Positions 21,413 through 23,253 of a stretch of DNA of 64,000 bases are shown here, piece by piece. A program made the position numbers and the translations under genes. Below the pieces are notes generated by a model. That model saw nothing but the letters and a program-made list of their open reading frames with translations. It ran no database searches and was not told the origin of the DNA. The first letter of the stretch is position 1, and the number at the start of each line of letters is the position of its first letter. The stretch lies in NCBI RefSeq assembly GCF_021919125.1, contig NZ_CP083439.1, positions 496,001 to 560,000 of the forward strand, read 5' to 3'. The DNA is from Clavibacter sp. A6099. Lineage in GTDB: Bacteria; Actinomycetota; Actinomycetes; Actinomycetales; Microbacteriaceae.

Positions 21413-21497
21413 GGAGGGCTGTCCGAGCGGCCGATGGAGCCAGTCTTGAAAACTGGTGGGCAGAGATGTCTCGTGGGTTCGAATCCCACGCCCTCCG
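21413..21497 (+). tRNA. tRNA-Ser(TGA)
   Basis: Complete 85-nt class II tRNA: 7-bp acceptor stem GGAGGGC/GCCCTCC, D-loop, anticodon stem CCAGT/ACTGG with loop CTTGAAA (anticodon TGA), a variable arm and the TpsiC arm GTGGGTTCGAATCCCAC; discriminator G at 21497. CCA is not encoded. Its last bases are the left attachment copy of the downstream island. A TAGGAT -10 lies about 45 bp upstream. Confidence 0.97.
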
Positions 21498-21498
21498 C
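21484..21498 (+). repeat. Left attachment repeat (tRNA-Ser 3' end)
   Basis: TCCCACGCCCTCCGC, the 3' half of the TpsiC arm and acceptor stem, is repeated exactly at 23224-23238. Duplicated tRNA 3' ends of this kind are produced by tyrosine-recombinase integration into tRNA genes. Confidence 0.85.
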
Positions 21499-21560
21499 TG
21501 TCACGTGAGAAAGCCCCAAGCTGCCTGCTATCCGCCCGGTCAGAACCCGAACAGGGGGCG

Positions 21561-21572
21561 CATAGAGTCATC
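21561..21572 (+). repeat. Island end repeat CATAGAGTCATC, left copy
   Basis: The 12-mer CATAGAGTCATC recurs at 23139-23150, followed there by a further TAGAGTCAT at 23153-23161. The copies sit at similar distances inside the two attachment repeats and in the same orientation, which is typical for accessory binding sites of an integrase or excisionase. Confidence 0.55.
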
Positions 21573-21579
21573 ATTATAG

Positions 21580-21789
21580 TTATTGTGCAGGCATGACTAC
21601 CTGGACCCCGGAGATGTAATCGTCAGGAGCAAAAGCATCCCAAACATCCAAGGCGCTACTCAGGTAATTCCATCCTGGGAAAAGCGCTTTTGTGATGATG
21701 TATTCCATGTTGACGAGGTCCATCCATCGCATAAGTTCGTCAGGCTCGGGAGCCGGGAAGTAGTCAGGTGTTGGTTTCTCATTGGGCAT
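21580..21789 (-). CDS. Hypothetical 69-residue island protein
   Basis: Begins MPNEKPTPDYFPAPEPDEL and contains the segment YIITKALFPGWNYLSSAL before an acidic end with WDAFAPDDYISG. Composition is protein-like (aromatic and acidic residues, unlike the Arg/Pro-rich shadow frames), but I recognise no family. The start overlaps the end of another minus-strand frame (stop at 21779) by eleven bases, suggesting coupling or a decayed longer gene. No strong ribosome site. Confidence 0.45.
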   Translation of the reverse strand: MPNEKPTPDYFPAPEPDELMRWMDLVNMEYIITKALFPGWNYLSSALDVWDAFAPDDYISGVQVVMPAQ

Positions 21790-21892
21790 CGTACGCACCG
21801 AAATAGTCCGGGAAGTCGTAATCAAGGGCTCGGTACTTCTCCACCCATTCCGCACGTGATATGATTTGCGCTTCTTCCCTTGATTCCTGCAT
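21779..21892 (-). CDS. Possible small or truncated island protein
   Basis: From the ATG at 21892 a 37-residue product (starting MQESREEAQIISRAEWVEK, ending YFGAYDAQ) would be made. The frame stays open upstream to a TAA near 21986 and that extension (including GHIRYTRQGPSFVFQGWKSW) also looks protein-coding but has no start codon, so this may be the 3' remnant of a broken gene. It ends inside the start of the 69-residue frame. Confidence 0.35.
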   Translation of the reverse strand: MQESREEAQIISRAEWVEKYRALDYDFPDYFGAYDAQ

Positions 21893-22116
21893 CTCATTCT
21901 CATAGGGCCATGACTTCCAGCCCTGGAAAACAAAGCTGGGCCCCTGTCTTGTGTATCTAATATGTCCGATTTGAAGACGTGCCTTTTATGGGTCCGTTAC
22001 TCGTGAGCGGCCTTACCTTTCCTTTTGTTGGTCGTGAAAGGGTTGTCGGCTGAGCGGGTGACTCCGCTGAATAACTCGCACTTTCAACTCTTCAGGGTCA
22101 GTAGTAGGGTGTGGTC

Positions 22117-23070
22117 ATGACAGGCGGCGAGTTACTCCCCATAGTTACCGGCGGTGCAAAAGCAATATCTTCGGCGAAGAATGCGTTAGACCCGGATAGC
22201 GATATTAAAAGCGAGCTGGCGAAACAAGCGTCGGCAAACGTACACTTTGCGGCGGCGGCGGAGCTACGGGCCAAACGGGCTCTGGTATCGCAAGTGGTCT
22301 TGCTGAAATTTATGCAGCCCATTGGGATGCTGATGAAGTTTAAGTCGGACTACTTTGCGAACGTATTCCCTCAGCAACTGGCAGAGCGTGTTGCGCAGAT
22401 TCCTGAGGAGCACGTGCGGGAGCCGAAGGCGTACGTCGTCGTCCCCGCGGTGGAGAACATAAGCAATGTCGCTGATGAACCAACTTTACGGGACCTGTAT
22501 CTTAACCTGATTGCCGGTGCTATGGACGACAGGATCGGCGAATCGGGCACCCATCCGTCCTTTGTGCAGGTTATAAGCCAGTTGGGGCCAGATGAAGCAG
22601 CTATTCTTCGCTCCATGTGGCGCGCGGCAACTGTGTGGGGTGTCGTGCAATTACATCACTACACGAAGGGTAACGAGGACGGCCGTTTTCTACCAAACGG
22701 AGGATATAAATGGGGGTTCATCGCGCCTGATGAGGATAAATATTACACATTCGATGGAATCAGCATTTATCTGACAAATTGGCGTCGGTTGGGGCTCATC
22801 AACCTTGACATGGCAAACATTCTGACCCGTGACGGAGCATACGAATGGCTTGAAAAGGATGACGAATACATCAGTATGAAGGCCAAGCACGGAGAGAACA
22901 TACGAGTAGTGCGGGGTGCGGTTTACCTCACTGACTACGGGCGAAGCTTTTGCAAGGCCGTGGGCATCTTGGACGCTGATGCATGGTCTCCCTACGGCTC
23001 GTTGAGTGAAGAGGAGCAGGAGTCTCGGGAGCACTCGGAGCCTGGGCAGTCGTGGGCTGCGCCTGAGTAG
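22117..23070 (+). CDS. DUF4393 / Abi-alpha family protein, candidate abortive-infection factor
   Basis: 317 residues. The N-terminal half (SAKNALDPDSDIKSELAKQA, then a hydrophobic-amphipathic helix VVLLKFMQPIGMLMKF) and the middle with LAERVAQIPEEHVREPKAYV, the NVADEPTLRDLYLNLIAGAMD block and HPSFVQVISQLGPDEA fit the DUF4393 (Abi-alpha) family, linked to abortive infection in other bacteria. The C-terminal half resembles a winged-helix-like region. The ATG at 22117 rather than the GTG at 22111 is favoured: TAGGGT lies exactly six bases before it. Base composition and codon usage are foreign. It is the only sizeable gene of the tRNA-Ser island, so anti-phage defence is a reasonable but unproven role. 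Confidence 0.72.
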   Translation: MTGGELLPIVTGGAKAISSAKNALDPDSDIKSELAKQASANVHFAAAAELRAKRALVSQVVLLKFMQPIGMLMKFKSDYFANVFPQQLAERVAQIPEEHVREPKAYVVVPAVENISNVADEPTLRDLYLNLIAGAMDDRIGESGTHPSFVQVISQLGPDEAAILRSMWRAATVWGVVQLHHYTKGNEDGRFLPNGGYKWGFIAPDEDKYYTFDGISIYLTNWRRLGLINLDMANILTRDGAYEWLEKDDEYISMKAKHGENIRVVRGAVYLTDYGRSFCKAVGILDADAWSPYGSLSEEEQESREHSEPGQSWAAPE

Positions 23071-23098
23071 CTGTGGGGACGTACGGCGGCGGGTCAGG

Positions 23099-23139
23099 GA
23101 GCCCGGCTACGGTCAGGGCTTTGCCCCGTAGCGAAGCTC
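23099..23139 (+). terminator. Hairpin after the DUF4393 gene
   Basis: GAGC (23099) and CTACGG (23107-23112) pair with CCGTAG (23126-23131) and GCTC (23136-23139), with an inner GGGC-TTT-GCCC hairpin. It begins 28 bases after the stop and is probably the transcript end, though it could also be a recombination-site structure. Confidence 0.5.
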
Positions 23140-23161
23140 ATAGAGTCATCCGTAGAGTCAT
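23139..23161 (+). repeat. Island end repeats TAGAGTCAT, right copies
   Basis: CATAGAGTCATC (23139-23150) and TAGAGTCAT (23153-23161), direct copies of the left-end repeat, lying 63-85 bp inside the right attachment site. Candidate arm-type sites. Confidence 0.5.
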
Positions 23162-23223
23162 TGACTTGCAGGGGTAGTCCCAGAATGTAGGGCTGACCGG
23201 CAGGTTCCGAAAAGTAGTAGGAG

Positions 23224-23238
23224 TCCCACGCCCTCCGC
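23224..23238 (+). repeat. Right attachment repeat
   Basis: Exact second copy of TCCCACGCCCTCCGC. Only 15 bases separate it from the ATG of the lcp gene, and those bases contain its GGAGAGG ribosome site. Before integration the lcp start must therefore have lain about 16 bp after the tRNA-Ser gene. Confidence 0.85.
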
Positions 23239-23253
23239 CCGGAGAGGATCCGC

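What the first reader, a model, noticed from the sequence alone, without database searches (positions are those of the whole stretch)
21413..23238. Minimal tRNA-Ser island carrying an Abi-alpha (DUF4393) gene without integrase
A 15-bp copy of the tRNA-Ser 3' end bounds 1.74 kb of clearly foreign, AT-richer DNA. The main gene fits DUF4393/Abi-alpha, associated with abortive infection. Absence of any integrase and presence of repeated TAGAGTCAT at both ends suggest a satellite-like defence cassette mobilised in trans. This is the best candidate for an undescribed system in the window.
Basis: partly seen in the sequence, partly recalled or inferred. Interest (0 to 1): 0.75.

Follow-up and report, generated by a model that had tools for sequence, protein, structure and literature searches.

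The report
Tiny tRNA-Ser island with Abi-alpha
A short piece of foreign DNA, inserted exactly at the end of a tRNA gene in one bacterium and missing from its sister species, carries a gene of a known phage-triggered suicide family but no enzyme to move itself; it looks like a small leftover or hitch-hiking defence cassette of a known kind.

Summary
tRNA-Ser(TGA) 21413-21498 is followed by 1740 bp of AT-richer DNA (21499-23238) ending in a 17-of-18 copy of the tRNA 3' end. In 17 of 17 congeneric genomes the chromosome resumes at window base 23239 directly after the tRNA: a base-exact empty site. The gene at 22117-23070 is a clear PF14337/DUF4393 Abi_alpha protein (E 9.8e-44). No integrase lies in the island. 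Tandem TAGAGTCAT repeats sit 63 and 85 bp inside the two ends, like integrase arm sites; five integrase-bearing elements at the same tRNA in other genera have tandem repeats of similar layout and other sequence.

The reading as an undescribed system does not hold. Abi-alpha was shown in 2019 to abort phage infection with premature lysis (PMC6356687), and integrase-less islands that keep attL and attR are known as CIMEs (PMC7563491). Best reading: a solo CIME-like element with an intact Abi-alpha gene. No helper with matching arm sites was found, so mobilisation in trans is possible but unproven. A 1.25-kb toxin-antitoxin-like island and eight sets of cargo-less repeats at the same tRNA elsewhere mark a recurrent hotspot.

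The parts
21413..21498 (+). tRNA-Ser(TGA), the integration target; stays intact
   Evidence: ARAGORN; 86 of 86 bases identical in 17 of 17 congeners
21484..21498 (+). left attachment-site core, inside the tRNA 3' end
   Evidence: 15-bp exact repeat of 23224-23238
21499..23238 (+). the inserted element, 1740 bp, 53.6% GC
   Evidence: base-exact empty site in 17 of 17 congeners; DNA in 1 of 18 genomes of the genus; GC
21563..21583 (+). left arm-like repeats: TAGAGTCAT 21563-21571 and a degenerate copy TATAGTTAT 21575-21583, 12-bp pitch
   Evidence: role as integrase arm sites inferred
23141..23161 (+). right arm-like repeats: TAGAGTCAT 23141-23149 and 23153-23161, 12-bp pitch
   Evidence: role inferred
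23221..23238 (+). right attachment-site copy of the tRNA 3' end (core 23224-23238)
22117..23070 (+). Abi-alpha (DUF4393) gene, 317 aa from ATG 22117 (319 aa from GTG 22111)
   Evidence: PF14337 E 9.8e-44, residues 86-284; PADLOC PDC-S47 5.7e-35; phrog_2232 2.6e-36
21779..21985 (-). open stretch of 68 codons plus stop, without a start codon in its first part; perhaps the 3' end of a lost gene
   Evidence: no Pfam match; no clear relative
21580..21789 (-). 69-aa ORF whose ATG overlaps the end of the former; orphan
   Evidence: no Pfam match

Best explanation
A non-autonomous, att-flanked genomic island (a solo CIME-like element) that entered the 3' end of tRNA-Ser(TGA) by site-specific recombination and left the tRNA intact. 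Shown: precise insertion, att repeat, empty sites, absence of an integrase, an intact Abi_alpha gene, paired tandem repeats near both ends. Inferred: the repeats are arm sites of an absent tyrosine integrase that could still cut the element out if supplied by another element; the element descends from a larger one by loss of its integrase region; and the Abi_alpha protein stays silent until phage infection, then kills or lyses the cell early so that few virions are made, as its E. faecalis relative does. How Abi-alpha senses phage or triggers lysis is not known; a membrane or holin-timing effect is my guess, from the published lysis phenotype and a moderately hydrophobic N-terminal helix.
For: Empty site in 17 of 17 congeners; att repeat; island in 1 of 18 genomes of the genus; Abi_alpha domain; no integrase in the island; arm-like 12-mer shared by both ends, 3 of 1000 shuffles. 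At the same tRNA in other genera five elements carry one clade of integrases (55-65% identical) with tandem repeats about 70-73 bp and 114-117 bp inside the ends, so the site is an established integrase target with this attP layout. Abi_alpha genes of three other genomes of the family lie near defence or mobility genes: SIR2-like plus resolvase, type I methylase and specificity genes plus an rve transposase, and a phage-integrase ORF beside tRNA-Phe. The family is common in phage contigs: 63 loci, 73 phage records. Published phenotype: PMC6356687 (abstract and passages). Definition and 1.2-13 kb size range of classical CIMEs: PMC7563491 (passages).
Against: No parent or helper element with TAGAGTCAT arms was found, so descent by deletion and mobilisability rest on anatomy alone. 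The arm offsets (63 and 85 bp) and 12-bp pitch differ from those of the known integrases of this site (70-73 and 114-117 bp; 11-bp pitch read). The left second repeat is degenerate. One genome per species is held, so spread within the species is unseen. Activity against phages was not tested; identity to other Abi-alpha proteins is only 20-33%.
Confidence: 0.7

Rival explanations
1. A dedicated mini-satellite: a compact element selected to move a single defence gene, cut out and inserted in trans by the integrase of phages or ICEs of the same site.
For: Both ends keep core and paired arm-like repeats; a second short island at the same tRNA in another genus (G389, 1246 bp, 36-bp perfect repeats) carries only an HTH_17 plus PIN_3 pair and no integrase; integrases of this site exist in the family.
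Against: No helper with these arms; no second copy of the island anywhere searched; the G389 island shows no significant arm repeats (119 of 1000 shuffles) and its empty site could not be tested because the downstream DNA is not syntenic in its 15 congeners; a start-less ORF beside the left end looks like decay.
Confidence: 0.2
2. A dead remnant: an old prophage or ICE end from which everything but one gene has been deleted, with no remaining mobility and perhaps no remaining function.
For: Only one gene with a known family; start-less minus-strand ORF; degenerate left second repeat; remnant-like cargo-less repeats of 76-160 bp at the same tRNA in eight other genomes.
Against: The Abi gene is intact and scores as high as its relatives; the composition is still foreign, so it is not old; both cores and arms are present.
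Confidence: 0.25
3. The gene serves prophage-like maintenance (superinfection exclusion for a former prophage) rather than general defence.
For: Relatives sit mostly in phage contigs and the published case is a prophage gene (PMC6356687).
Against: No prophage gene is left in the island, and three family relatives are in defence or mobility neighbourhoods.
Confidence: 0.2

Closest known systems
Abi-alpha (DUF4393, PF14337) of Enterococcus faecalis V583 prophage 6 (PMC6356687)
   Same: Same Pfam family at E 9.8e-44; single gene; carried by a mobile element; same distant fold relative 3H35 that the paper names.
   Different: Host lineage is a 72% GC bacterium of another phylum (genus not named by the tools); the carrier is a 1.74-kb integrase-less island, not a prophage; activity untested.
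CIME (cis-mobilizable element), e.g. in Streptococcus salivarius (PMC7563491; PMC5704250)
   Same: attL and attR kept, integrase and transfer genes absent; 1.74 kb falls in the published 1.2-13 kb range; cargo-less 76-160 bp repeats at the same tRNA in other genomes resemble microCIMEs (130-220 bp in the paper).
   Different: Stands alone, not in tandem with an ICE or IME; parent element unknown, so descent from an ICE or IME rather than a phage is not shown.
Integrase-bearing elements at the same tRNA-Ser(TGA) in other genera of the family (G074, G136, G263, G130, G392)
   Same: Same target, same 15-bp core, tandem repeats on both sides of the core.
   Different: 15.9 to 75 kb, own integrase, other arm sequences and offsets.
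1246-bp island of genome G389 at the same tRNA
   Same: Integrase-less, short, single cargo module of the defence or addiction type.
   Different: HTH_17 + PIN_3 pair instead of Abi-alpha; 36-bp perfect repeats; no significant arm repeats.

Membership tests
Abi-alpha / DUF4393 (PF14337) | match to the Pfam profile over its curated cut-off | tested here: met
   150.1 bits against a cut-off of 29; profile positions 9-196 of 196
Abi-alpha / DUF4393 (PF14337) | shared fold with the relative named in print (3H35) | tested here: met
Abi-alpha / DUF4393 (PF14337) | aborts phage infection with premature lysis | not testable with these tools
   phenotype known only from PMC6356687
CIME (cis-mobilizable element) | attL and attR retained | tested here: met
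   17-of-18 repeat with exact 15-bp core, exact empty site in 17 of 17 congeners
CIME (cis-mobilizable element) | no integration or transfer genes | tested here: met
   no PF00589 in the island; the ORFs scanned give only Abi_alpha; smaller ORFs not scanned
CIME (cis-mobilizable element) | derived by deletion from an ICE or IME | tested here: inconclusive
   no parent found; start-less ORF at the left end is only suggestive
CIME (cis-mobilizable element) | moves by accretion with an incoming element | not testable with these tools
   needs excision and transfer tests
Phage satellite (PICI-like, P4-like and the like) | own integrase and genes for replication or capsid piracy (recalled definition) | tested here: not met
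   one gene with a known family in 1740 bp; no integrase

The most novel reading that the evidence does not exclude
tRNA-Ser(TGA) in this family hosts a class of integrase-less mini-islands, each with one defence or addiction module (Abi-alpha here, HTH-PIN in G389, perhaps a LigD polymerase-domain gene in G068), that keep attP cores and arms and are moved in trans by the integrases of larger elements of the same site; the Abi-alpha one depends on a helper with TAGAGTCAT arms that has not been sequenced.
Probability: 0.2. Interest if true: 0.6.

Novelty: new member of a known kind. Interest (0 to 1): 0.35.

Why it matters
It extends a phage-tested suicide protein family to a high-GC bacterium on the smallest kind of carrier, and points to one tRNA gene where whole elements, single-module islands and empty scars can be compared. 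If integrases of this site can be shown to move the small ones, it would give a simple model for how lone defence genes spread without carrying their own recombinase.

Tried and rejected
Helper hunt: arm motif in 398 genomes of the family with up to one mismatch (1 of 398, the window's own genome; the reversed control pattern hit once, in G410); a related exact motif in genome contigs (14 stretches, none actinobacterial by title, about what chance would give) and viral contigs (1 stretch, no att core). The core with its preceding bases in viral contigs: 4 stretches; one (L129, 14.4 kb) has two copies at a tRNA-like end but no TAGAGTCAT; the other three lie outside a tRNA context. Own integrases: the 383-aa one is 31-33% identical to the clade of this site and has no TAGAGTCAT nearby. 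Island DNA against plasmids and phages: no match. The search for related loci with the Abi protein in genome contigs: 51 pattern hits, no confirmed relative.

G068: a 1826-bp interval with a LigD primase-polymerase gene looked like a third mini-island; its left end shares a 16-base word with the right end of the G392 element (read), but its own two ends share no significant word (858 of 1000 shuffles) and a congener, G142, has the same gene 94.6% identical downstream of the tRNA without a second exact core in the stretch fetched. Left as ambiguous. G414: the left 15-mer is not in a tRNA; chance. G367: assembly gap inside. G215 (copies 364 kb apart) and G246 (copies on two contigs) were not resolved.

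Minus-strand ORFs of the island: no Pfam, one 0.7 E-value match in plasmids, none in phages, none in viral contigs, five matches at E 0.04-0.1 in 299 genomes apart from the own one. Considered as a toxin-immunity remnant; no support.

Papers: 'DUF4393' 3 papers, 'Abi-alpha' 3, 'abortive infection alpha' 0, 'Clavibacter' with 'prophage' and 'tRNA-Ser' 0; CIME and integrase-less searches, read only as listings but for PMC5704250 and PMC7563491 (passages).

Full report
Observation. ARAGORN puts tRNA-Ser(TGA) at 21413-21498. After it come 1740 bp at 53.6% GC between flanks at 72-73%, closed by a copy of the tRNA 3' end (17 of 18, exact 15-bp core). All 17 other genomes of the genus that are held have the same tRNA, 86 of 86 bases, and go on at once with the homologue of window base 23239. 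The island DNA is in 1 of 18 genomes of the genus. The insertion is therefore exact, recent on the scale of the genus, and not a chance repeat.

Content. The 317- to 319-residue ORF at 22111/22117-23070 matches Abi_alpha (PF14337) at E 9.8e-44 over residues 86-284, PADLOC's candidate PDC-S47 at 5.7e-35 and phrog_2232 at 2.6e-36. NCBIfam gave only one sub-threshold match, at E 0.069. Left of it, on the minus strand, are a 68-codon open stretch without a start in its first part and an overlapping 69-aa ORF, both without Pfam matches and without clear relatives. No tyrosine recombinase lies in the island; the genome has three over the cut-off and one fragment, all elsewhere.

Ends. TAGAGTCAT occurs three times in the window, once near the left end and twice near the right; with a degenerate copy on the left this makes a tandem pair at each end, 12 bp apart. 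The longest shared word of the two ends (12 bases) was reached in 3 of 1000 shuffles. The match count of the extended motif is circular, since the motif was read from these two places.

The site elsewhere. The 15-bp core was found in 268 of 398 genomes of the family. Twenty of the 398, the window's own among them, have two or more copies on one strand. Five have an integrase gene beside the repeat (G074, G136, G263, G130, G392). Three, the window's included, have a short cargo-bearing interval without integrase: 1740 bp here, 1246 bp in G389, 1826 bp in G068. Eight have only cargo-less repeats 76-160 bp apart. Four were set aside: G414 (chance), G367 (assembly gap), G215 and G246 (not resolved). 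The five integrases are one clade, 55-65% identical, and their elements show tandem repeats on both sides: GCCCACA-type in three, GGCCACA-type in G130, GACAACA-type in G392, 70-73 bp inside the left and 114-117 bp inside the right end. The window's repeats have the same plan at 63 and 85 bp with another sequence. So the site is a real integrase target and the repeats are most simply arm sites, but of another integrase than these five.

The G389 island holds an HTH_17 protein (E 4.9e-11) and a PIN_3 protein (E 1.5e-9) between 36-bp perfect repeats, a likely toxin-antitoxin pair (inferred). Its empty site could not be checked: the matches of its downstream DNA in 15 congeners are short and weak. 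Its ends share no significant word (119 of 1000 shuffles). The G068 interval is ambiguous for the reasons given under tried and rejected.

Helper. Nothing with the window's arm repeats was found: 1 of 398 genomes of the family, the own one; 14 non-actinobacterial hits; one viral contig without the core. The own 383-aa integrase is only 31-33% identical to the clade. Mobilisation in trans therefore remains an inference.

Function. In E. faecalis the founding member, on prophage 6, abolishes plaques of phage Idefix, cells die, and lysis comes about 10 minutes early; the mechanism is unknown (PMC6356687, abstract and passages). By homology the window's gene most likely does likewise. Not shown here.

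Class. CIMEs are elements that have lost integration and transfer genes and kept attL and attR; in S. salivarius those with cargo span 1.2-13 kb, and microCIMEs without cargo 130-220 bp (PMC5704250, PMC7563491; passages). The island fits the anatomy; descent from an ICE or IME is not shown, and a phage parent is as likely. The cargo-less repeats in eight genomes resemble microCIMEs.

Verdict. An accurate observation with a clear and largely ordinary explanation: a known kind of remnant or hitch-hiking island with a known defence gene in a new lineage.

Noticed in passing
L075:482-1727 (genome G389): 1246-bp integrase-less island at the same tRNA-Ser(TGA), 36-bp perfect repeats, HTH_17 + PIN_3 gene pair.
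   Followed up: partly
L084-L091 (genomes G413, G079, G400, G125, G170, G371, G260, G158): Cargo-less repeats of the tRNA-Ser 3' end 76-160 bp apart, in two genomes as three copies with equal spacing (96 bp, 78 bp); microCIME-like scars.
   Followed up: partly
L073:369-2209 (genome G068): 1826-bp interval with a LigD primase-polymerase gene between two core copies, followed by a 19.9-kb interval to a third core; no PF00589 match in either.
   Followed up: partly
L017:2450-3540 and L018:2444-3564 (genomes G009, G007): About 1.1 kb of extra DNA just upstream of the same tRNA in two congeners, with what looks like a zinc-dependent alcohol dehydrogenase gene (reading from memory of the family).
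   Followed up: no
L040 (window's genome, C1 near 893354): A phage-integrase fragment with a stop beside tRNA-Phe/Asp/Glu; in genome G289 an Abi_alpha gene and an integrase ORF lie beside the same tRNA trio.
   Followed up: no
L129 (viral contig, 14394 bases): Two copies of the core 13.9 kb apart with 40-odd identical preceding bases at a tRNA-like end: probably a whole small element at a tRNA-Ser of another lineage.
   Followed up: no
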